A stretch of 9,085 nucleotides of DNA, from contig JAJYRT010000072.1 in assembly GCA_021793945.1 (NCBI GenBank), positions 1 to 9,085 of the forward strand, read 5' to 3'. Position 1 is the first letter of the stretch; each line of letters starts with the position of its first letter. A program made the translations under genes and the position numbers. Below, piece after piece: positions 11 through 8,863 of the stretch. A model generated the notes under the pieces. That model ran no database searches, was not told where the DNA came from, and worked only from the letters and a program-made list of their open reading frames with translations. This stretch comes from Thermoplasmata archaeon. GTDB lineage: Archaea > Thermoplasmatota > Thermoplasmata > Thermoplasmatales > Thermoplasmataceae.

Positions 11-1759
11 ATGGTTATTATTATTGCGATTGCAGCCTATGCTGCATTGTACTCCACCCTTTCAGTCATACGTTTCCTGACCTATAATGCTTATGTATAC
101 GACCTTGGGCTCAGTTCCTCACTCTTGTACAGCGCGGTACACAATGGAACTTATTTTTTTATCCAGAACCCAGGAAATATCACGGCTAACAAGATGATAT
201 ACATACTGCTGGCTGTAATCTTTCAATTCTACCCAAATTTTATCCCGCTTCTCATCTTCCAGTCAATATGGATAGCTGTTGGGGCATACCCTCTCTACAG
301 GATCTCGAAAAAAGTTATTGCTGATCCGGTTCTCTCTCTACTCCCTTCACTGCTTTATTTGCTGTATTACCCATTGGCGGGTGTCAGCTGGTACGATTTT
401 CACTTCATGGCGTTGTTTCCAACATTTTTCTTCTTCGGCTTCTGGCTATACCTGTGTGACAGGAAGGTGGCATCCGCCCTGGTTCTATTTCTTGCAGCGA
501 TGACAAATTATCTCGCGGCAGCAATCGTACTGATATTTGGCATTGTTGCCATATTCAGTAAGCGGGACGGCAGTTCGCGCATCCCGGATAAATTATACGG
601 GATATCGCTGATCGTATTTCCTTTGATTTTGTTCATGATCATAAACATGCACTTTGGCGTATCATACACAACCTCTGTTTCCAATGCGAGTGGTTTTCCC
701 ATGGATCTGTTTGCATACTTGTCTCTTAAGCTGTTCCTTGTCTTTTCACTCCTTTTTCCGTTATTCTTCATTTCACTGTATTCACCCAAGTACCTTTTAC
801 TGGCGCTGCCCTATGTCGCCTTTGTCTTTTTTCAGGGAAACCACCTTGCATATTTCAGCCCGATCAACTTCCAGTACCCCTCTCTTGCGATTCCTGGCCT
901 TTTCATTTCCTTTGTATACGGATTCAGGAGACTGATGGAAATTTCAAGGAAAGCCGGGAATTCCAGGAGAGTTGGCAGGGTTGTCAAGGCAATAGTTGCC
1001 GTGAACGTGTGCATGGCCGTGATCCTCACGCCTGTGGGGAGCATCATTTCTGGGAACAGCACTTTTTATGACGGACAAACAGCCATGACTTATACTGTAC
1101 AAGATTCCGCGATCAATGCCATGATTGCACAGATTCCACCCGGATCATCGGTCATGATCCAGGCAAACATGCCACAGCTCACTGCCGGGTATGACTGGAT
1201 GGTGGCATACGAGTTTAATGGGAGCAACTACCCGAAATTCGCAATTGACGATCCCTATGAGCACCTGTTCAACGATACGGAGCAGGTGTATCTTTCGAAC
1301 ACATCACAGGAGGTCAAGGTATTCAATGAATTCCTCAAATCCGGCAAATACGGCATTGTCGAGGAGCAGTATGGCATCATTCTTCTCGAGAGAAACTGGA
1401 CGGGATCACTGAAATTTTTCACTCCCCTGGAGTTCAATCACTCACTGACAATAAATGATAGCGGTAAGGCAACGTTGAACCTGAGCGAAAGCTTCATTGC
1501 TCCGGGAGCCTACAACGTCACTGTCTATCTTGGCAAATGGGTTACCTCGGCCCTTCAGTTCTCAGCCGGTATTGGCAACAGGACCATTCAAGGCAATGGG
1601 GTTAAAAACTGGAGCAACGGGAATGGAAATTTTGTCTCCTGCTCTATTTCCGTGGGAACGTCATATTATCTGGAACCACATTTCAGCCTGGCGATCAATA
1701 CCAATTCTACCCAGGCTGCAGCCGCATGGGTCAAAATTACACAGGATAGGCCAATGTAA
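11..1759 (+). CDS. DUF2079-family polytopic membrane protein, GT-C-like, with extra C-terminal domain (possibly 5' partial)
   Basis: Predicted integral membrane protein with about ten hydrophobic segments across residues 1-346, then a hydrophilic tail of about 235 residues. It is recognised as DUF2079 by YDLG (30-33) just after the first helix, WYDFHFMALFP (127-137), an IPPGSSV turn (375-381) and YGIILLER (454-461). Placement of an acidic residue in the first outer loop recalls GT-C glycosyltransferases that use lipid-linked sugars, but no reaction is proven for the family. The tail carries about twelve N-X-S/T sequons, suggesting it lies outside the cell. Residues after about 470 look beta-rich and have no counterpart in the paralogue at 4241-5836. 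The frame is open from base 2 (codons W-E-R precede the ATG), and the paralogue has some 20 more residues before its first helix, so the true start may lie upstream of the window. A 129-base gap containing a promoter separates it from the next gene. Confidence 0.8.
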   Translation: MVIIIAIAAYAALYSTLSVIRFLTYNAYVYDLGLSSSLLYSAVHNGTYFFIQNPGNITANKMIYILLAVIFQFYPNFIPLLIFQSIWIAVGAYPLYRISKKVIADPVLSLLPSLLYLLYYPLAGVSWYDFHFMALFPTFFFFGFWLYLCDRKVASALVLFLAAMTNYLAAAIVLIFGIVAIFSKRDGSSRIPDKLYGISLIVFPLILFMIINMHFGVSYTTSVSNASGFPMDLFAYLSLKLFLVFSLLFPLFFISLYSPKYLLLALPYVAFVFFQGNHLAYFSPINFQYPSLAIPGLFISFVYGFRRLMEISRKAGNSRRVGRVVKAIVAVNVCMAVILTPVGSIISGNSTFYDGQTAMTYTVQDSAINAMIAQIPPGSSVMIQANMPQLTAGYDWMVAYEFNGSNYPKFAIDDPYEHLFNDTEQVYLSNTSQEVKVFNEFLKSGKYGIVEEQYGIILLERNWTGSLKFFTPLEFNHSLTINDSGKATLNLSESFIAPGAYNVTVYLGKWVTSALQFSAGIGNRTIQGNGVKNWSNGNGNFVSCSISVGTSYYLEPHFSLAINTNSTQAAAAWVKITQDRPM

Positions 1760-1852
1760 TGACTGTCAGGGAATGCCACGCAATCCAACCCACATCCCAT
1801 CAGCTTATGTATCCTGTTATGCAAAATGCATTATCATTTCCCAGTTTACAAA

Positions 1853-1888
1853 GAAACTTTAAATGCTCGAATTTCCATAACGAGGGCA
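1853..1888 (+). promoter_or_regulatory. Archaeal promoter (BRE/TATA) for the glycosyltransferase operon
   Basis: GAAACTTTAAATG at 1853-1865 reads as a purine-rich BRE followed by a TATA-like box centred near 1861. The ATG at 1889 lies about 27 bases downstream, where an archaeal transcript would be expected to start, so the mRNA is probably leaderless. This argues against the longer reading frame from 1826, whose first codons would span the TATA box. Confidence 0.6.
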
Positions 1889-3115
1889 ATGAATAAAATT
1901 AGTGCTTCTCCCGAATTAGGGATCAAGTCGGGGGAGTCGCCAATGAAATCTCAACGCCTATCATCATATTCAGATAAGGATTTCGTAATAATAAACTGGC
2001 GGGATATATTGAATCCAAAGGCAGGCGGAGCTGAAAAATACTGTTATGAAATGGCCCGGAGGCTTGCCTCTGATGGTGTCAGGGTCACATGGATTTCTTC
2101 AGGATATTCCGGTGGTGCTTCACATGAAATCCATGAGGGAATCGAGATAGTGAGGAAGGGAAACATATTCACGGTTTACGTAGCAATGCTGGGAAAATTC
2201 ATGAAATTCAGGAAAAACGCCTATATTCTGGAGTCAGTGAACGCAATCCCTTTCCTTTCGGCTTTAATAAGCAGGAAGAGGAAGACTGTCATGATCCATC
2301 ATCTCATACCATACTCCGTTTTCAGGGAGAAACTTGGCCTGTTGGCGCCATTAGCGTACTTCATGCAGAACGTTCTGAATCCAGCCCTCTACAGGAAAGC
2401 AAGAGTTATAACAAACAGCGAATCCACAAAGAAAGAACTGATCAGTCAGGGATACAGGGACGTAAATATTGTCAAGACTGGAGTGGACGCTGGTTTTTAC
2501 AAGCCAGCATTAAAGATGGACTATCTGGTGGCACCCGGACCGCTGAGGCCATGGAAAAACCATTCGGACATACTGCAGGCACACTCAAGCCTCCCGGATA
2601 ATTTTCACCTTTTCATTTTTGGAACTGCAGAGACAGAAGAATATGAAAAAATCCTCAAAACCGAGGCAACAAATCTCGGAATCAGGGAGAGAGTGCACTT
2701 CCTCGGAAGAATTTCGGACGACGAGAAATCGAAGCTTTATTCAATCGCGAAGCTGTCTTTCAGCGCCTCGGTGAAGGAAGGGTGGGGACTGAGCAACATG
2801 GAATCGCAGTCGTTCGGATGTCCTGTCGTAGGATACGATGTTCCGGGAGTGAAGGATTCCGTCAGGAACAATGTCACTGGAAGGCTGGTCGAATACGGAA
2901 ATCCGGCCGCTCTTGCGTCATCCGCCAATGAACTGCTTGCCAACAGGGAACTTCTCAATCAGTACTCAGAACGTGCAGTTATATGGTCAAGGAACTTCCT
3001 CTGGCAGGAGTGCTACAAGGAATTTCTCAATGCAACCGTGGCATACAATAGGAAGGTCGATCTTGATCAGCATCACAACCTGTTTGAGTTCCTTCCCTGG
3101 ATCAAGACACGTTAA
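1889..3115 (+). CDS. GT4-type glycosyltransferase
   Basis: Predicted cytoplasmic, GT-B-fold retaining glycosyltransferase of 408 residues, a normal length for family GT4. It would transfer a sugar from a nucleotide-sugar donor to a growing glycan, probably on a lipid carrier; sugar and acceptor cannot be read from sequence. The N-terminal Rossmann domain opens with NWRDILNPKAGGAEKY (36-51), the glycine-rich loop typical of GT4. The C-terminal donor domain starts around PGPLRPWKNH (216-225) and has the E-X7-E signature EGWGLSNME (297-305), followed by FGCPVVGYDVPG. No membrane helix is evident. Start 1889 is preferred because it sits about 27 bases after a TATA box; ATG 1943 is an alternative (390 residues) with a GGGGAG ribosome-site-like stretch at 1931-1936. 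It is the first gene of a three-gene operon with the next glycosyltransferase and a DUF2079 protein. Confidence 0.85.
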   Translation: MNKISASPELGIKSGESPMKSQRLSSYSDKDFVIINWRDILNPKAGGAEKYCYEMARRLASDGVRVTWISSGYSGGASHEIHEGIEIVRKGNIFTVYVAMLGKFMKFRKNAYILESVNAIPFLSALISRKRKTVMIHHLIPYSVFREKLGLLAPLAYFMQNVLNPALYRKARVITNSESTKKELISQGYRDVNIVKTGVDAGFYKPALKMDYLVAPGPLRPWKNHSDILQAHSSLPDNFHLFIFGTAETEEYEKILKTEATNLGIRERVHFLGRISDDEKSKLYSIAKLSFSASVKEGWGLSNMESQSFGCPVVGYDVPGVKDSVRNNVTGRLVEYGNPAALASSANELLANRELLNQYSERAVIWSRNFLWQECYKEFLNATVAYNRKVDLDQHHNLFEFLPWIKTR

Positions 3116-3138
3116 TAAGCCCAAATCAATTAAACCGC

Positions 3139-3144
3139 TAAGGA
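3139..3144 (+). promoter_or_regulatory. Ribosome binding site before second glycosyltransferase
   Basis: TAAGGA lies four bases before the ATG at 3149, in the 33-base gap after the preceding stop. It supports this start over the in-frame ATG at 3179, which has no purine-rich stretch before it. The match to the archaeal anti-Shine-Dalgarno sequence is short. Confidence 0.4.
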
Positions 3145-3148
3145 TACC

Positions 3149-4240
3149 ATGTCAGAGATCAATTCACTGAATTTCAGTATGAAAAATAACTCCGCAGTGA
3201 TATCCTGTTCGCCTGTGAAAACTGGGCTTGGGACTTATTCCAGGCTTCTTTATGACCTCGATCTCTTTGAGAACCTTATCTTTTTCAGGAAGTCGTCCAG
3301 AAGCGATGAATCAGGGTATGAAAACGTGGTAAAACCGGACCACGGTCTGTACAATCTGCGGGCCTTTCTCTCCGTTTATGGCATCTCCTTCTGGAAGAAG
3401 TACATCCAGCGTTATGGGTTCATCCACCTCACTTCCCCGGAGTTCTTTCACCTTGTCAGGTACAATCATAACATGACAGGAACGGTACATGATCTCCAGC
3501 CCATTGATGATCATGTGTCTCGTAGCGCATACTCCTATGCCTTCATACAATACATGAAAAAGAATTACGAGGCAATGGGCAGCCTGAAGGGCGTGATCGC
3601 GATTTCCGACGTTACTGCTGAAGCAATAAAGGAGAAGCTTCCGGATGTCAATCCAGTCGTAATTCACCACTGGACTGATGACAGGTTCATTTTCAGGGAC
3701 AGGAATTCAGTGAGAAAGAAGCTCGGATTCGATAAGGATGTAAAGTACGTACTCAACGTGAGCTCTCCGGAGCCCAGAAAGAGCCTTGACCTGCTGCCGA
3801 AACTTATTGCCTCGCTTCCGGAGAATTTCAGGCTTATAAGAATAGGCAAAATGACCCCTGCCCTGCAGAGGATAACGGACAGCAGGTTTGTCAACATCGA
3901 TTCAGTATCCGACGAGGATTACCCTCTCTATTTCAATGCATCGGACGTATATTTCGGCCCCAGCGTCAGGGAAGGCTTCGGAAGGCCCACCATCGAGGCG
4001 ATTAACTCCTCTCTGCCTGTTGTCCTCTCAGACATACCGATAAACAGGGAGATCCTCAGGGACAGCAAATTCCTGATCGATCCTGAAACTCCTGAAGATT
4101 TCATGGATAAAATCATGCAGGCGGCAGATATGGGCGAGAGTGCGAGAGTTTCACTGTATTCTCACATAGGAGATTACTACAGGAAAGGCAGGGCTCTAAG
4201 GGAGTATAAGGAATTCTACGGAAGGATAGAGGTATCATAA
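3149..4240 (+). CDS. GT4-type glycosyltransferase
   Basis: Second predicted cytoplasmic GT-B glycosyltransferase, 363 residues. The N-terminal acceptor domain has GLGTYSRLL (26-34), the usual G-X-G-X-Y loop, and GTVHDLQPI (111-119), where the HD motif is common in mannosyltransferase-like GT4 enzymes. AISDVTAEAI (151-160) and VNPVVIHHW mark the interdomain hinge. The donor domain begins near LNVSSPEPRKSL (202-213) and has the E-X7-E motif EGFGRPTIE (275-283), followed by SSLPVVLSDIP. It is divergent from the preceding glycosyltransferase, so it probably makes a different linkage. It lies 33 bases after that gene, and its stop codon abuts the ATG of the downstream DUF2079 gene, so the three are probably co-transcribed. 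Sugar specificity is not determinable here. Confidence 0.85.
   Translation: MSEINSLNFSMKNNSAVISCSPVKTGLGTYSRLLYDLDLFENLIFFRKSSRSDESGYENVVKPDHGLYNLRAFLSVYGISFWKKYIQRYGFIHLTSPEFFHLVRYNHNMTGTVHDLQPIDDHVSRSAYSYAFIQYMKKNYEAMGSLKGVIAISDVTAEAIKEKLPDVNPVVIHHWTDDRFIFRDRNSVRKKLGFDKDVKYVLNVSSPEPRKSLDLLPKLIASLPENFRLIRIGKMTPALQRITDSRFVNIDSVSDEDYPLYFNASDVYFGPSVREGFGRPTIEAINSSLPVVLSDIPINREILRDSKFLIDPETPEDFMDKIMQAADMGESARVSLYSHIGDYYRKGRALREYKEFYGRIEVS
4229..4233 (+). promoter_or_regulatory. Ribosome binding site for second DUF2079 gene
   Basis: GAGGT, a good match to the archaeal Shine-Dalgarno core, ends seven bases before the ATG at 4241 and lies inside the last codons of the upstream glycosyltransferase. 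This fits translation of an internal operon gene. Confidence 0.55.
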
Positions 4241-5836
4241 ATGGATCAGGATGCAGTGGAGACCGGAAAGGCCGGAACCCCAGAAAAACGCATCTACCTG
4301 CTATTGCTGTTCGCCGGTCTCCTGTTGTACAATGCCGCCTGGATATACGTAAGCTACATCAGGTATACTTCCCTAAACTACTCCGTCTGGGACCTGGGAG
4401 TAAATTATGAGCGTGCCTGGCAGGTACTGCACGGGTCGCTCACTACCTTATCGGACTTCGTCGGATTTTTTTCCACCGACTTCATTGTGGTGATCCTGTC
4501 TCCTTTATCCATGATCAACCAGCTGTCTTCACTGCTCGCTGCACAGTTGGTTGCTCTTGACATTTCCTGCATATTGATTTACAAAATATCCATGTTCGTC
4601 CTGAAGGATCGATGGAAATCCACGGCAATCTCAACCGCTTTTCTCTTCTACCCGCCCCTTGCGGGGATAACGTGGTTTGATTTCCATTACCAGGTGTTCT
4701 TCATACCGTTTTTCCTTGCTGGATACCTTTTCTATCTACGGGGAAACTATGTTGCTTCTGGCGTGATGATGGTGCTGGGCGGTACTGTCAGATTTCCGTA
4801 CGTGGTTTTTCCATTGATATTCTCTCTCGGCGCAATTGTTTCGCAGTTTGCGACTGGTGGCGATGAAAGATCAAGGGCAAAGTTCTCATACGGCGTAATA
4901 CTGTTGGTGGTTGCAGCCATCCTTCTGGTTATAGGCTACGTGGAGAGCAATGGGATGGAATATGTGGCGTTTCTCTCCTCCTCATTCGGCGGGATCACAC
5001 CATTCGAACATACGCCCCTGGCCATATTGATCACGATCTTTCTCATATTTGCGTTCCTGCTGTTCCAGCCGGTTTTTTCAAGGAAATGGCTTCCTTTCCT
5101 TATACCATATATCGTGCTCATAGTGATCTCATCAAACACCTACTTTCTATACCCTCAGTTCTTCCACAGGCAATACGGAGGCCTTTACATCCCTTTCATG
5201 TTCCTTGGACTGATAGACTCTGTGGTTGTGCTGGAAAAATGCCTGAAGAATCATAAATTCAGGAGCAAACGAATAAAGAGAAAGGTCGTATGGCTGTCAA
5301 AGCATTCAGTCACGGCAGTTCTTGTTCTGATGATCGTAGCTGTCCCTTTCTTTCAGCCATACGGTCCGCTTAATTTCGCAAGCCCCAACAATTTCTACTT
5401 CGAGAAGGAAATGGCTAACTCAAACATCTCCCAGGTCAACGGCCTTAACACAATAATTGCCCTCATACCCGGAAATGCAACGGAAATACTCATCCAGAAC
5501 AATCTCCCCGAATACTTTCCAAGGCCACTTTACAACAATACTATCCTGGCGCCTCCCATAGTTAGCTTCCAGAATTTTTCGCTTTATTCCATACAGAGTG
5601 ACAGGTTTAACGTATCCGGACCTGGAGGAGTAACGATTTCCCTTCCCCTGCAATATGTTCTCCTCGATTATGGTTCAAGCCAGTTCACCGCTGGAAACCC
5701 GAGCATGAAGAACATGTCGGAAATGATGCTCGAATCCGGTTATTATGGTGTCTACGCACAGGACGGCCTCATAGTGCTATTGGAGCGGGGTTACTCCGGA
5801 CCTACCGTAATGGTAGGGAATCCATACTTTACGTGA
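4241..5836 (+). CDS. DUF2079-family polytopic membrane protein, GT-C-like (paralogue of 11-1759)
   Basis: Predicted membrane protein of 531 residues: a charged cytoplasmic N-terminus (1-16), about ten hydrophobic segments over 17-371, and an outward-facing tail (372-531). It shares the landmarks of the first DUF2079 protein: VWDLG (49-53) after helix one, AGITWFDFHYQVFF (141-154), LIPGNATEILIQNNLPEY (408-425) and YYGVYAQDGLIVLLERGY (501-518). Six N-X-S/T sequons fall in the tail and one in the first outer loop. It ends soon after the LLERGY element and so lacks the extra C-terminal domain of the paralogue. Its start codon directly follows the stop of the upstream GT4 gene, tying it to glycan synthesis. 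A GT-C-like transfer from a lipid-linked sugar outside the membrane is a reasonable inference; the family has no established reaction that I can cite. Confidence 0.82.
   Translation: MDQDAVETGKAGTPEKRIYLLLLFAGLLLYNAAWIYVSYIRYTSLNYSVWDLGVNYERAWQVLHGSLTTLSDFVGFFSTDFIVVILSPLSMINQLSSLLAAQLVALDISCILIYKISMFVLKDRWKSTAISTAFLFYPPLAGITWFDFHYQVFFIPFFLAGYLFYLRGNYVASGVMMVLGGTVRFPYVVFPLIFSLGAIVSQFATGGDERSRAKFSYGVILLVVAAILLVIGYVESNGMEYVAFLSSSFGGITPFEHTPLAILITIFLIFAFLLFQPVFSRKWLPFLIPYIVLIVISSNTYFLYPQFFHRQYGGLYIPFMFLGLIDSVVVLEKCLKNHKFRSKRIKRKVVWLSKHSVTAVLVLMIVAVPFFQPYGPLNFASPNNFYFEKEMANSNISQVNGLNTIIALIPGNATEILIQNNLPEYFPRPLYNNTILAPPIVSFQNFSLYSIQSDRFNVSGPGGVTISLPLQYVLLDYGSSQFTAGNPSMKNMSEMMLESGYYGVYAQDGLIVLLERGYSGPTVMVGNPYFT
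5801..5817 (+). other. Perfect short hairpin at the end of the DUF2079 gene
   Basis: CCTACC and GGTAGG form a perfect 6-bp stem around a GTAAT loop, about 17 bases before the TGA. No clear T-run follows. It could slow or help end transcription between the convergent genes, but archaeal termination mainly depends on T-tracts, so this may be chance. Confidence 0.25.
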
Positions 5837-5918: not shown

Positions 5919-6893
5919 TTACTGGTGTTTTTCGCATGAATAAATACGATGGCGCATATCCCGCGGATCACTGGAAACCCTTATCAATTGCTGGGAAACA
6001 AGGGTATCTATGGCTATCTGCACTGTCCTGCGATTGAGGCCCGTTATACTGCCAATCTGCCCCTGGTCCAGGGAAAGGTGGGAGGAAATAACATGATACA
6101 CAAATTTTGTCGCAGGACTTCCCGACACTTTCCCCGTTCCTGCGAAGCCTCCAAAGTTATCTCCCCTGAAGCCTGATCTCTGGCTTTGCAAAGGCAGAAC
6201 ACTCAGCAGGGAAACATTTCCCAGATTCACGTATGGGCCAAGTTTGGTTATGAGCTGCGCCTGCTGTTCCTCAAGTGGCGCTTCGAACATTATCCTCGAT
6301 TGATCAAAGTTCTCGATTATCCTGGAAACCCAGTCCCATTTTATGTGCCCCTCATTATCATATATCTCCACGCTTCTTCCCGTTTCCCGCCCCTCAATGA
6401 TCACCAGATCTGGTTCAAAGTCAAGTGCACTGTTGATTCCATCTATGGTATCCTCAAGAGATAGCTGATTTCCCGCGTTCTTCCTGCCAACCTCTATGTG
6501 CAGTTTCATGGCATGTTCCCTTGCGAATTCAGCAACCATTTTCTTTTCCCTGTTCGGTATGTCAATAACGCCCTCACTGAGTTCAATTACGGTAAAACCC
6601 GCATCTAGAATATGATCCAGGGCCTTCATGGTCTTGTTCTTTGAAGAGGCAATCTCCAGCATCGTACCACCGTTAGACACATCGACGCCATACTGTCGGT
6701 ACATCTGCACCCGTTTCCGAACCTCCGTTTCTTCCAGAAGGAGGGGTAGCCCCCATCCTATCTTTGCTACGGTCATAAAGCCGCTGGTCCATTCGAGGCT
6801 TTCCTGTATTCCGGGCAGCATACGATCTATGACCATTGTTTTCGGTTTCGGATCCAGATTATTCCTCTTAAGTTCATCAAAAAACAGTGCCAT
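5919..6893 (-). CDS. Phosphosulfolactate synthase (ComA) homologue fused to a C-terminal winged-helix DNA-binding domain
   Basis: Residues 1-250 match the ComA TIM-barrel family. True ComA joins sulfite to phosphoenolpyruvate to give (2R)-phospho-3-sulfolactate, first step of one coenzyme M route. Family landmarks in order: TMVIDRMLP (19-27), VAKIGWG (42-48), GVDVSNGGTMLE (69-80), FTVIELSEGVIDIP (100-113), IEVGRK (133-138), VIIEGRETG (164-172), IMFEAPLEEQQAQ (201-213), VNLGNVS (222-228) and RSGFRGDNFGG (239-249). ComA normally ends about here, near 250 residues. This protein continues for 74 more. After a GTGKVSGSP linker, residues 262-320 look like a winged helix: helix ATKFVYHVISSH, turn with QIGSITGL, recognition helix NRRTVQIAIDTLVSQ, then wing LIRVSSDPRDMRHRIYS. 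The start is placed by a TATA-like box 25-26 bases upstream (leaderless). It is divergent from the APS reductase gene. It could be an enzyme, a regulator using the barrel as a sensor, or both. A plant HSA32-like ComA relative without sulfite chemistry is the main alternative. Confidence 0.82.
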   Translation of the reverse strand: MALFFDELKRNNLDPKPKTMVIDRMLPGIQESLEWTSGFMTVAKIGWGLPLLLEETEVRKRVQMYRQYGVDVSNGGTMLEIASSKNKTMKALDHILDAGFTVIELSEGVIDIPNREKKMVAEFAREHAMKLHIEVGRKNAGNQLSLEDTIDGINSALDFEPDLVIIEGRETGRSVEIYDNEGHIKWDWVSRIIENFDQSRIMFEAPLEEQQAQLITKLGPYVNLGNVSLLSVLPLQSQRSGFRGDNFGGFAGTGKVSGSPATKFVYHVISSHLSLDQGQIGSITGLNRRTVQIAIDTLVSQQLIRVSSDPRDMRHRIYSCEKHQ

Positions 6894-6913
6894 GCCAATG
6901 TTACACTAAATCA

Positions 6914-6922
6914 ATATGTAAA
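6914..6922 (-). promoter_or_regulatory. TATA-like box for the ComA-wHTH gene
   Basis: On the minus strand this reads TTTACATAT, centred about 25 bases before the start codon at 6893. The spacing fits a leaderless transcript. Confidence 0.5.
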
Positions 6923-6934
6923 TCTTCCCATAAG

Positions 6935-6963
6935 ATATGAAATGCATGCTCAAAACTTCATAT
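6935..6963. repeat. Inverted repeat ATATGAA / TTCATAT in the divergent promoter
   Basis: Arms at 6935-6941 and 6957-6963 are perfect 7-bp complements with a 15-base spacer that contains the first GCATGC element. The size and spacing suit a dimeric winged-helix regulator, but AT-rich arms can arise by chance. Confidence 0.35.
6943..6955 (+). promoter_or_regulatory. Candidate operator copy 1 (TGCATGCTCAAAA)
   Basis: First of two 13-base elements identical at 12 positions, each built on the palindrome GCATGC. This copy lies between the two TATA boxes, about 20 bases upstream of the ComA-wHTH TATA box. It is a candidate binding site for a regulator; the regulator's identity is not shown by sequence. 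Confidence 0.45.
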
Positions 6964-6976
6964 AACACACCTATAT

Positions 6977-6989
6977 TGCATGCTTAAAA
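6977..6989 (+). promoter_or_regulatory. Candidate operator copy 2 (TGCATGCTTAAAA), overlapping the APS reductase TATA box
   Basis: Second copy of the element, 34 bases (just over three helical turns) after the first and in the same direction. Its 3' half is the probable TATA box of the APS reductase gene, so a protein bound here would compete with TBP/TFB and repress. Confidence 0.45.
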
Positions 6990-6992
6990 ATA
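6983..6992 (+). promoter_or_regulatory. TATA-like box for the APS reductase / ATP sulfurylase operon
   Basis: CTTAAAAATA centred near 6987 predicts a transcript start around 7013, giving a leader of about eight bases before ATG 7021. A second AT-rich stretch, CATATATC at 6995-7002, is a weaker alternative. No ribosome binding site precedes 7021, as expected for a short leader. Confidence 0.45.
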
Positions 6993-7020
6993 CACATATA
7001 TCTGAGAAAAATCATGGGCA

Positions 7021-7731
7021 ATGTTGAATGAAAAAATGCAAGAATCTGCTGATATACTGCTCCGGGCATACAAAACATACGGTGACAAGGTGGTTTTCCT
7101 CACGAGCTTCAGCATGGAGGATAATGTAATCACCGACCTCATGAGCAGGGCGGGAATAGGCATAAGGCATTTCACCTTGGATACCGGCCGCCTTGCCCAG
7201 GAAACCTACGACATAATGGAAATAATTTCCAACAGGTATGGAATAACTCCGGAGATTGTCCTCCCGAGGGCAGATGAAGTTGAGGATATGGTGAGAGCGC
7301 ATGGAATCAACCTCTTCCGCGATTCCCCATCCATGAGGGAACTGTGCTGCGAGACCAGGAAAATAAGGCCGTTGAACCGCATTCTCTCCGTAAAAGGAGC
7401 ATGGATTTCCGGCATAAGGGCAGAACAGACCCGTTATAGAAAGAAAAGCGAAATGGTGGAATCAGATCCGCTGCGTCCCGGGATCATGAAATACAATCCA
7501 CTACTGAACTGGAGTTCAGCGTATGTAAAGGAATACACGGAAAAATTCGCGATTCCAGTCAATGCCCTGTATTCCAGGGGGTACAGGAGCATAGGCTGCG
7601 CTCCGTGCACGAGGGCAGTCCTGCCGCATGAGAGTGAACGTAGCGGAAGATGGTGGTGGGAAGACGGCGTGAAAGAGTGCGGAATCCATGCGGCCGTTCG
7701 ATTCATTCCTGCACTGAAAGGGGATGAGTAA
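7021..7731 (+). CDS. cysH: Adenylyl-sulfate (APS) reductase, CysH family, iron-sulfur type
   Basis: Predicted cytoplasmic thiol-dependent reductase that converts APS to sulfite and AMP, the second step of sulfate assimilation. The 236-residue protein is close to the usual length of CysH without a thioredoxin domain. Landmarks: TSFSMEDNVI (28-37), the modified nucleotide-binding loop; TLDTGRLAQETY (52-63); SGIRAEQTRYRK (130-141), which contacts the sulfonucleotide. Cys109-Cys110 (RELCCETRK) and Cys193-X2-Cys196 (GCAPCTR) form the [4Fe-4S] set that marks APS reductases rather than cluster-free PAPS reductases. Cys220 in KECGIH is the catalytic thiol that carries the sulfo group. The electron donor should be thioredoxin or a similar thiol protein and is not encoded nearby. 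Its 3' end meets the ATP sulfurylase gene, so the two consecutive enzymes are co-transcribed. ATG 7036 is a possible later start. Confidence 0.92.
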   Translation: MLNEKMQESADILLRAYKTYGDKVVFLTSFSMEDNVITDLMSRAGIGIRHFTLDTGRLAQETYDIMEIISNRYGITPEIVLPRADEVEDMVRAHGINLFRDSPSMRELCCETRKIRPLNRILSVKGAWISGIRAEQTRYRKKSEMVESDPLRPGIMKYNPLLNWSSAYVKEYTEKFAIPVNALYSRGYRSIGCAPCTRAVLPHESERSGRWWWEDGVKECGIHAAVRFIPALKGDE

Positions 7732-7732
7732 C

Positions 7733-8863
7733 ATGGTTTCAAAACCGCATGGAGGCAAGCTGGTCACTGTAGGGAGCCTGAATTCGCAATCATTTGGGCG
7801 CAGGGACATGTCTTTGGAAGTTGATTCAAGGACTGCTGTCAACCTCTTCCTTATAAAAACCGGCATATTCAGCCCGCTGGTTTCATTCAGCACACGGGAG
7901 GATTATGACAGCATCTTGAAGGACCAGAGACTGGGAAACGGGATACCATGGTCAATACCCATAATTCTTGACATCGATCCCGGGAAATTCAAGGTGTCCG
8001 AGGGAGACACGATCATTTTGAGGCGCAATGGTCATTATCTTGCTGAAATGTACGTCGATGATATGTGGGAGTTCAGCAAGGGGGAATTCTGCGACAGGAT
8101 ATTTGGAACAAGGGATCCGGGTCATCCCGGCGTAGAAAGAACGCTAGAGATGGGTTCGATGATTTTATCGGGGAAGGTTGTGGGTATATCAGGCCAGGAC
8201 TTGCCCTTCAATGAATACTTCCTGACACCGGTTCAGGCAAGAAAACTGTTCAACGACAGGTCATGGAAAACAATAGCGGCCTTCCAGACCAGGAATATAC
8301 CACATCTTGGGCATGAATACCTGCAGAAGTCTGCGCTGAACATGGTAGACGGATTGTTCATTAACCCTGTGGTAGGAAGAAAGAAGGCAGGTGACTTCAG
8401 TGACGCAATAATCGTGGGAGCATATGACCGTACCCTGAAATCTTATTACCCCACTGAAAGGGTGCTGTTTTCCGTTCTGCATTACGAGATGTATTATGCC
8501 GGTCCGAGGGAGGCAGTGATGCATGCAATAATGAGGAAGAATTTTGGTTGCACGCATTTCATAATAGGCAGGGATCACGCAGGTGTGGGTGACTATTACC
8601 CTCCATACGCAGCCCGGGAAAATCTGGAGGCCTTTGACGACCTTGGTATTGAGATCATTCCATTTGAGGAGGCAGTTTACTGCAAGGCGTGCAAATGGAT
8701 CACAACAGTCAATAACTGCCCCCATGGAGAGGACAGGAGAATTCGGTTCAGTGCCTCAATGATAAGGGAGAAATTGCAGAAAGGGATGGATATCCCGGAA
8801 GAGATAATGCGAGGTGACGAGGTGGAATGGATCAGGAAGCAGGACAGCATCTTCGTGACCTGA
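7733..8863 (+). CDS. sat: Sulfate adenylyltransferase (ATP sulfurylase)
   Basis: Predicted cytoplasmic homo-oligomeric enzyme that activates sulfate with ATP to APS and pyrophosphate, the first step of sulfate assimilation. The 376 residues match the archaeal/bacterial single-chain Sat without an APS kinase domain. An N-terminal PUA-like domain (about 1-165) starts with the conserved SKPHGGKLV. The catalytic domain has QTRNIPHLGHE (185-195) with the HXGH nucleotide site, GRDHAGVGDYY (279-289) and FSASMIREKL (339-348). Cys317-X2-Cys320, Cys329 and His331 (CPHG) resemble the zinc site of thermophilic Sat enzymes. ATG 7733 is preferred: family members begin near MVSKPHGG, and AGGGG at 7719-7723 lies nine bases upstream. 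ATG 7724 would overlap the APS reductase stop by eight bases and has no spacer after the purine run. It lies one base after the APS reductase stop, and no APS kinase follows, consistent with direct use of APS. Confidence 0.93.
   Translation: MVSKPHGGKLVTVGSLNSQSFGRRDMSLEVDSRTAVNLFLIKTGIFSPLVSFSTREDYDSILKDQRLGNGIPWSIPIILDIDPGKFKVSEGDTIILRRNGHYLAEMYVDDMWEFSKGEFCDRIFGTRDPGHPGVERTLEMGSMILSGKVVGISGQDLPFNEYFLTPVQARKLFNDRSWKTIAAFQTRNIPHLGHEYLQKSALNMVDGLFINPVVGRKKAGDFSDAIIVGAYDRTLKSYYPTERVLFSVLHYEMYYAGPREAVMHAIMRKNFGCTHFIIGRDHAGVGDYYPPYAARENLEAFDDLGIEIIPFEEAVYCKACKWITTVNNCPHGEDRRIRFSASMIREKLQKGMDIPEEIMRGDEVEWIRKQDSIFVT

What the first reader, a model, noticed from the sequence alone, without database searches (positions are those of the whole stretch)
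5919..6893. ComA (phosphosulfolactate synthase) fused to a winged-helix DNA-binding domain
Seen: a continuous frame with all ComA family landmarks to residue 249, where the family normally ends, followed by a linker and about 60 residues with a clear winged-helix pattern. Known: ComA is a stand-alone TIM-barrel enzyme using sulfite and PEP. Inferred: the protein is either a dual-function (trigger) enzyme or a transcription factor that uses the ComA barrel to sense sulfite, PEP or a sulfonate. Its place opposite the sulfite-producing operon fits such a loop. I know of no described regulator of this architecture.
Basis: partly seen in the sequence, partly recalled or inferred. Interest (0 to 1): 0.75.

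Follow-up and report, generated by a model that had tools for sequence, protein, structure and literature searches.

The report
Enzyme-derived sulfite gene switch in archaea
In acid-loving archaea, an enzyme that normally uses sulfite carries a DNA-binding domain and sits back to back with the genes that make sulfite, so it is most likely a gene switch that reads sulfite through an enzyme pocket.

Summary
Window 5919-6893 (-) encodes 324 residues: a ComA barrel (19-245, E 1e-58) plus a C-terminal winged helix, modelled confidently, with MarR-type folds as closest matches. All 80 genome loci fetched carry the tail. In 36 loci plus the window the immediate divergent neighbour is cysH, usually followed by sat. 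The gap between them holds, in related loci, a 19-bp palindrome (ATATGnAAnnnTTnCATAT-like) far above shuffles; its matrix also finds a site upstream of comA in 7 of 8 loci that it was not built from, some beside UDP-sulfoquinovose synthase or a sulfonate transporter. The window's own gap carries only a weak or re-spaced version. Of 41 genomes with the fusion, 39 have ATP sulfurylase, 38 a UDP-sulfoquinovose synthase homologue, 7 a sulfite-reductase-type gene. Best reading: a one-component regulator that senses sulfite and/or PEP through a ComA barrel and controls sulfite production and its own gene. Whether it still catalyses is open: core residues are kept, other positions changed family-wide, and the ComC family was found in 0 of 8 genomes. 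My searches found no description of this architecture.

The parts
5919..6893 (-). comA-wHTH gene, 324 aa; close relatives are named phosphosulfolactate synthase in databases where they have a name
6150..6839 (-). ComA TIM barrel, residues 19-248
   Evidence: Pfam PF02679 E 1.3e-58; aligned to 1qwg residues 15-249; model confidence mostly over 90
5934..6116 (-). MarR-like winged helix, residues 260-320; recognition helix about 288-300 with the RRTVQ motif
   Evidence: which helix reads DNA is inferred from MarR structures (recalled)
6894..7020 (.). 127-bp divergent gap between comA-wHTH and cysH, the presumed shared control region
   Evidence: distance from cysH start to projected comA start 80-139 bp in 36 regions (35 loci and the window), 119-139 in 32 of them
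6914..6932 (.). weak match to the cross-clade palindrome (TATGGGAAGATTTACATAT on the - strand), centre about 30 bp before the comA start; candidate operator only
   Evidence: held-out rank 11 of 9067, 2.4 bits; -0.2 bits with the final matrix
6935..6963 (.). inverted repeat ATATGAA - 15 nt - TTCATAT: the half-sites of the cross-clade motif, 10 bp wider; candidate operator only
   Evidence: post hoc, one example
7021..7731 (+). cysH, APS/PAPS reductase (makes sulfite)
   Evidence: PF01507 E 7e-37; NF002537 221 bits over cut-off 154, TIGR02055 215 bits under its cut-off of 235
7724..8863 (+). sat, ATP sulfurylase; overlaps cysH by 8 bp
   Evidence: PF01747 E 1e-80; TIGR00339 328 bits over cut-off 323

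Best explanation
A one-component transcription factor of Thermoplasmata and some Nitrososphaerota, made by fusing a MarR-like winged helix to the C-terminus of a ComA (phosphosulfolactate synthase) barrel. Shown by computation: the fusion, its conservation, the divergent cysH-sat neighbour, and a palindromic motif in the shared control region of related loci and in front of comA in others. Inferred: the palindrome is its operator; the protein controls its own gene and cysH-sat, hence the flow of sulfate to sulfite; the barrel senses sulfite, PEP or the adduct (ComA uses sulfite and PEP), with binding changing the grip on DNA, most simply as end-product repression so that toxic sulfite does not build up. 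The sulfite is probably wanted for sulfonated sugars (UDP-sulfoquinovose) rather than for cysteine by way of a sulfite reductase. Whether the barrel still catalyses is left open; the trigger-enzyme rival below is a special case of this reading.
For: Fold and domain. Conserved tail: all of L001-L080 and 117 of 122 ComA frames in the 141 loci held then, some overlapping; the 5 without it are a different ComA subtype, 48-73 bits on the fused-family barrel profile against 214-384 for the tailed frames printed. Neighbour: cysH is the immediate divergent neighbour in 36 loci plus the window; cysH homology is seen in 38 of 80 loci, some of which end too close to comA to show a neighbour. Gap. Palindrome: score 117.8 against 42 +/- 3.7 in 40 dinucleotide shuffles, maximum 54.7. 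Held-out scan: the best site of the whole locus lies in the gap region in 19 of 32; 200 column-shuffled matrices give mean 3.4, maximum 16. Eight loci not used for training with no cysH seen beside comA: upstream site ranks 1-5 in 7 of 8; 500 shuffled matrices mean 1.5, maximum 6. Two sites lie 32-33 bp apart in 8 of 11 pairs. Other neighbours also concern sulfite or sulfonates: UDP-sulfoquinovose synthase near comA in L007, L014, L042; SsuA-type sulfonate-binding protein divergent to comA in L039, with a homologue so placed in L040. 41 fusion genomes: Sat 39, UDP-sulfoquinovose synthase homologue 38, NIR_SIR 7. 34 of 57 canonical ComA invariants are kept in at least 90% of 57 fused proteins, including K137, E168, R170, E171, E205.
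Against: No binding or expression data. In the window itself the motif is weak (rank 11 of 9067; no site of 6 bits or more); it is also weak or absent in L034 (Ferroplasma), L065 and L008. Shared ancestry inflates motif scores although relatives of 65% identity or more were left out of the held-out training. The soil Thermoplasmata loci mostly show no cysH beside comA and gave no credible operator. A shared promoter gap could keep two genes together without regulation. Some pattern sites lie upstream of unrelated genes, so the target set is not known. Only 36 of 200 genomes of the class draw have PF02679.
Confidence: 0.7

Rival explanations
1. Trigger enzyme (a special case of the best explanation): the barrel is a working phosphosulfolactate synthase that also regulates. 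It removes sulfite by adding it to PEP and, through the winged helix, turns down sulfite production when the substrate is bound.
For: Core ComA residues kept in at least 90% of 57 fused proteins (34 of 57 canonical invariants). Only 7 of 41 genomes have a NIR_SIR gene that could reduce sulfite. ComB (PF04029) is present in 22 of 41.
Against: 23 of 57 canonical invariants are not kept; K209 is Glu in 57 of 57, T48 is Leu in 43 and S49 is Pro in 46 of 57, at places just after barrel strands in the model and so near the active face (inference). The ComC family was found in 0 of 8 genomes. ComB is not tied to the fusion: in the 200-genome draw 17 of 36 genomes with PF02679 and 20 of 164 without it have ComB. 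NCBIfam's ComA equivalog cut-off is not reached (204.6 against 280).
Confidence: 0.35
2. Plain phosphosulfolactate synthase with a C-terminal extension used for assembly or stability; cysH-sat neighbour because they feed it sulfite.
For: Named so in the databases where a name is given, apart from one 'hypothetical protein'. The neighbour supplies the substrate.
Against: The tail is MarR-like by profile and fold, with invariant Arg, Thr and Gln in the helix that MarR proteins use on DNA (the helix role is recalled). The palindrome is also found before comA in loci with other neighbours.
Confidence: 0.12
3. Regulator that controls mainly genes elsewhere (glycan or sulfosugar genes); cysH-sat are bystanders sharing a promoter region.
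For: UDP-sulfoquinovose synthase homologues in 38 of 41 genomes and near comA in three loci; in the window glycosyltransferases and DUF2079 proteins lie on the far side. Three pattern sites lie upstream of other genes, one 134 bp before a glycosyltransferase-like gene (L130; gene naming is my reading). In front of UDP-sulfoquinovose synthase the best site ranks first in its piece of about 2-3 kb in 5 of 20 places, highest 13.0 bits at 238 bp in L186.
Against: The other 19 places before UDP-sulfoquinovose synthase score only -2.8 to 9.2 bits, while comA-cysH gaps of related loci often score 12-20. Of nine pattern sites read, four lie inside frames of unrelated genes and two at comA promoters; most relaxed-pattern sites were not read.
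Confidence: 0.12

Closest known systems
ComA, (2R)-phospho-3-sulfolactate synthase of methanogens and Bacillus (PF02679; 1qwg, 1u83)
   Same: Same barrel over residues 18-248 (1qwg Foldseek E 1.4e-22); charged core residues kept.
   Different: M. jannaschii ComA is 251 aa and ends where the tail begins; 23 of 57 canonical invariants not kept, some changed family-wide; under the TIGR03849 cut-off; ComC family in 0 of 8 genomes.
MarR-family regulators (PF12802, PF01047)
   Same: Winged-helix fold; palindromic sites in related loci.
   Different: Only the roughly 65-residue winged helix; the solved chains listed are mostly 124-169 aa, and their dimerisation helices (recalled) are absent, so the barrel must supply dimerisation and sensing.
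Enzyme-derived archaeal regulator IMPDH VII (MTH126) of Methanothermobacter
   Same: A relative of a metabolic enzyme with a predicted winged helix-turn-helix, binding a promoter region; from a passage of PMC3087415.
   Different: Its other part is described there as two CBS domains of an IMP dehydrogenase-related protein; not ComA, not sulfur.
Bacterial trigger enzymes such as BirA, PutA and NadR (recalled)
   Same: Enzyme and DNA-binding domain in one chain controlling the linked pathway.
   Different: Different folds and pathways; no ComA member known to me.

Membership tests
ComA / phosphosulfolactate synthase | Pfam PF02679 over the curated cut-off | tested here: met
   198.8 bits against 25.2
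ComA / phosphosulfolactate synthase | NCBIfam archaeal ComA equivalog TIGR03849 over its cut-off | tested here: not met
   204.6 bits against 280
ComA / phosphosulfolactate synthase | Residues invariant in stand-alone ComA | tested here: inconclusive
   34 of 57 kept in at least 90% of 57 fused proteins; K209 is Glu in 57 of 57
ComA / phosphosulfolactate synthase | Downstream pathway ComB and ComC in the genome | tested here: not met
   In relatives' genomes: ComC family PF02615 0 of 8; ComB family 22 of 41, also in 20 of 164 genomes without PF02679. The window's own genome is not held
ComA / phosphosulfolactate synthase | Sulfite addition to PEP | not testable with these tools
   needs an enzyme assay
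MarR-like winged helix (domain) | Winged-helix fold | tested here: met
   model pLDDT 92.8; MarR-type structures among the best matches, 28 matches at E up to 0.001
MarR-like winged helix (domain) | Pfam MarR model over its cut-off in the window protein | tested here: not met
   22.4 bits against 27 for the tail alone; 43 of 49 aligned tails match MarR_2 at E up to 0.01
MarR family proper | Own dimerisation helices around the winged helix | tested here: not met
   the tail model consists of the winged helix alone; the definition is recalled
Palindrome-binding regulator | Conserved palindrome at its own and the target promoter | tested here: inconclusive
   present in related loci; weak in the window itself; binding not measured
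Trigger enzyme | Catalysis and DNA binding in one protein | not testable with these tools
   neither activity measured

The most novel reading that the evidence does not exclude
A bifunctional sulfite governor: a catalytically live ComA barrel that consumes sulfite with PEP and, by the same substrates, switches its winged helix on paired operators about three helical turns apart, coupling sulfate reduction to sulfosugar demand and to carbon status. It would be the first ComA-based transcription factor that I know of and a sulfite-sensing switch built from an enzyme.
Probability: 0.35. Interest if true: 0.85.

Novelty: new variant of a known kind. Interest (0 to 1): 0.72.

Why it matters
The control of sulfate reduction in archaea is little described (my recall), and many proteins filed as phosphosulfolactate synthase in Thermoplasmata look instead like regulators or dual-function proteins. 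The case gives a directly testable operator, candidate ligands (sulfite and PEP) and a likely link from sulfate through sulfite to the sulfonated sugars of acidophile surfaces. It also warns that a ComA hit is not evidence for coenzyme M synthesis.

Tried and rejected
Viral contigs: no match to the window protein. Ordinary stand-alone ComA: rejected as the sole role because of the conserved winged helix and the palindrome.

ComB as proof of catalysis: rejected as weak, since ComB also occurs without PF02679 (17 of 36 against 20 of 164) and in G207 lies beside ribosomal protein genes (those names are my reading of the sequences).

Target search by pattern: the strict pattern gave 6 sites in 5 of 8 genomes, 3 of them at comA promoters. 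The relaxed one gave 49 forward matches against 20 for the reversed-pattern control over 8 genomes. Of nine sites whose surroundings were read, two are comA promoters (L136, L137), four lie inside frames of unrelated genes (L125, L127, L133, L138) and three lie upstream of other genes (L123 194 bp, L130 134 bp, L141 27 bp); a tenth, in L167, lies inside a ribosomal-protein-like frame. Most relaxed sites were not read, so further targets are not excluded. Before UDP-sulfoquinovose synthase (17 stretches fetched plus L007, L014, L042) one site reaches 13.0 bits; the other 19 score -2.8 to 9.2.

Soil-clade palindrome (31 upstream stretches, score 126 against 46 at width 19): rejected as comA coding sequence, because most sites fall at the projected start and reflect the N-terminal codons (this explanation is my reading).

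The chance expectation of 0.5 printed for the held-out test was too lenient, because intergenic DNA is AT-rich; column-shuffled matrices give 3.4 of 32, maximum 16, and that figure is used; the matrix trained on all regions gives 26 of 32. Before the motif counts L075 was dropped (no usable gap) and so were four near-duplicates (L028, L035, L044, L046), leaving 32 of 37 regions. Of the nine loci listed for the independent test L012 was dropped (no upstream DNA); L042 was not tried (comA at the contig start); L026 has only 129 bp upstream, so its neighbour is unseen; L021, L022 and L026 are relatives of each other, as are L039 and L040. Rank 1 in 3 of those 8 was matched by 3 of 500 shuffled matrices, rank up to 5 in 7 of 8 by none. 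The neighbour table left out L077.

Papers: no text on a ComA-winged-helix fusion seen in searches (listings only). Passages were seen in PMC11507031, PMC3087415, PMC4153887, PMC12448462 and PMC4388408 (of the last also the abstract); term look-ups without hits in PMC5473848, PMC5155288 and PMC7285479. Searches were on neighbouring topics. The library holds open-licence papers only.

Full report
What is there. The frame at 5919-6893 on the minus strand is real and continuous, 324 aa. Residues 19-245 match Pfam ComA at E 1.3e-58, and the best solved relatives, forms of M. jannaschii ComA such as 1qwg, align up to residue 248. The remaining 75 or so residues are a linker and a winged helix. In single-sequence search the tail is a weak MarR hit, under Pfam's cut-off. 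The profile of the whole family reaches three MarR-type PDB chains at E 0.004-0.009. The profile of the tail alone has MerB2 first (E 0.0004), then MarR-type regulators at 0.0005-0.0016. AlphaFold2 gives the winged-helix order of elements in the whole protein (mean pLDDT 90.3) and in the tail alone (92.8); Foldseek of the tail lists mostly MarR-type regulators, some bound to operator DNA.

How widespread. A protein search gave 97 homologues, 94 of them 301-349 aa long. A scan of species genomes found 258 stretches encoding a relative and kept the best 80; record titles name Thermoplasmata or Thermoplasmatota, Nitrososphaerales and Thaumarchaeota MAGs, Ferroplasma acidarmanus and a few MAGs labelled bacterium or archaeon. 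A tail profile finds the winged helix in all 80 of these and in 117 of 122 ComA frames over the 141 loci held at that time, some of which overlap. The five without it (L084, L091, L092, L093, L113) score 48-73 bits on the fused-family barrel profile, against 214-384 for the tailed frames printed, and belong to another ComA subtype. In a draw of 200 genomes of the Ferroplasma class, 36 have PF02679.

Neighbours. In the window cysH (7021-7731) and sat (7724-8863) start 127 bp away on the other strand. CysH homology is found in 38 of 80 loci, some loci being too short to show a neighbour; cysH is the immediate divergent neighbour in 36 loci plus the window. From the cysH start to the projected comA start it is 80-139 bp in 36 regions (35 loci and the window), 119-139 in 32 of them. 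In L074 and L080 sat lies directly upstream on the same strand. Elsewhere other sulfite or sulfonate genes can be near: UDP-sulfoquinovose synthase in L007 (578.6 bits, cut-off 575), in L014 (572.8, just under, interrupted by a long insertion) and in L042 (61% identical by tblastn); in L039 a sulfonate-type ABC substrate-binding protein (TIGR01728, 202.8 bits over 163.5) with ATPase and permease genes, divergent to comA, and a homologue of it so placed in L040. Many soil Thermoplasmata loci have none of these nearby.

Operator candidate. A search for a palindromic 19-mer over 32 comA-cysH regions (the gap plus 30 bp of either gene) gave ATAtGaAAAaTTTtCaTAT, score 117.8; 40 dinucleotide shuffles gave 42 +/- 3.7, maximum 54.7. 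In a held-out test (relatives of 65% identity or more removed from training) the best site of the entire locus fell in that region in 19 of 32 and ranked within ten in 29. Column-shuffled palindromic matrices put the best site there in 3.4 of 32 on average, at most 16, over 200 trials. A further check uses eight loci that were not in the training set and show no cysH beside comA (their proteins are 49-58% identical to the nearest training member): the upstream site ranks first in 3 and within five in 7 of 8; of 500 shuffled matrices 3 reach three firsts and none reaches seven within five. Where two sites pass 6 bits they lie 32-33 bp apart in 8 of 11 pairs, about three helical turns. Many best sites lie near the middle of the gap, with a second one nearer to one start.

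Results against. The window's own gap does not carry a good site: rank 11, 2.4 bits in the held-out test, -0.2 bits with the final matrix, whose best site near there has 1.9 bits. It does hold ATATGAA (6935-6941) and TTCATAT (6957-6963) 15 nt apart, the same half-sites with 10 bp more between them; this is post hoc. Ferroplasma (L034) and L065 have no site of 6 bits, and L008 only one of 7.1 (held-out ranks 91, 10 and 36). In the soil clade no operator was found; the apparent palindrome is comA coding sequence. In front of UDP-sulfoquinovose synthase one of 20 places has a 13-bit site, the others at most 9.2. Three of nine pattern sites read lie upstream of unrelated genes. So the set of targets beyond comA and cysH-sat is open.

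Where the sulfite goes. I took 41 genomes with the fusion: the 8, 28 more from the draw, and 5. For G058, G130 and G166 the tail was not checked; the tail-less G016, G068, G098, G185 and the fragmentary G091 were left out. ATP sulfurylase is found in 39, a UDP-sulfoquinovose synthase homologue in 38 (G210 only a piece at a contig end), but NIR_SIR in only 7. Many are incomplete assemblies, so absences are soft. Agl3 of Sulfolobus makes UDP-sulfoquinovose from UDP-glucose and sulfite (abstract of PMC4388408), and a Thermoplasma acidophilum protein is in that paper's list of compared sequences (passage). The title of a reference cited in PMC12448462 says that Thermoplasma acidophilum surface glycoproteins carry an N-linked glycan with 6-C-sulfofucose. 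So a supply of sulfite for sulfonated sugars is the likely purpose of cysH-sat here; that is inference, and genomes without the fusion were not counted for UDP-sulfoquinovose synthase.

Sensor or enzyme. Of 57 columns invariant in 8 stand-alone ComA (7 methanogen sequences, 1 B. subtilis) 34 are kept in at least 90% of 57 fused proteins, including D20, K43, K137, E168, R170, E171, E205, R240 and R244. The other 23 are not; K209 is Glu in 57 of 57, T48 is Leu in 43 and S49 is Pro in 46. The pocket thus seems to be under selection but retuned (inference). ComC (PF02615) is in 0 of 8 genomes. ComB (PF04029) is in 22 of 41 but also in 20 of 164 genomes without PF02679, against 17 of 36 with it, so it says little.

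Verdict. The most likely role is a transcription factor that reads sulfite and/or PEP through a ComA-derived barrel and controls sulfite production and itself. A live enzyme in the same chain is possible. It is a new variant of a known kind, the enzyme-derived regulator; an archaeal precedent of that kind is the IMP dehydrogenase-related IMPDH VII (passage in PMC3087415). No description of a ComA-based regulator turned up in the searches made.

Noticed in passing
L014:9495-11780: UDP-sulfoquinovose synthase in a Nitrososphaerales MAG is split by an insertion of roughly 350 residues with an intein-like look (my reading), beside comA-wHTH.
   Followed up: partly
L021, L022, L026: A second comA-wHTH copy in some Thermoplasmata MAGs; in L021 and L022 its divergent neighbour is a Ras-like GTPase gene (Pfam call on L022), and L021 and L026 rank high for the palindrome upstream.
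   Followed up: partly
6935-6963: Inverted repeat ATATGAA - 15 nt - TTCATAT in the window's gap: the half-sites of the cross-clade motif, one helical turn wider.
   Followed up: partly
11-5836: Two DUF2079 membrane proteins flank two GT4-type glycosyltransferases on the plus strand; the same order is kept in L001 and L002. Perhaps a surface glycan cluster.
   Followed up: no
L167:650-1315: ComB homologue of G207 lies beside ribosomal protein genes (my reading), not sulfur genes, suggesting another role for ComB there.
   Followed up: partly
L130:1644-2708: A palindrome site 134 bp before a glycosyltransferase-like gene in G208, a possible further target.
   Followed up: no
L016, L020, L037: One MAG (TL1-4.bin52) holds three comA-wHTH loci with cysH; possibly a mixed bin.
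   Followed up: no
L009, L012, L072: MAGs labelled 'bacterium' carry the archaeal fusion; their labels may be wrong.
   Followed up: no
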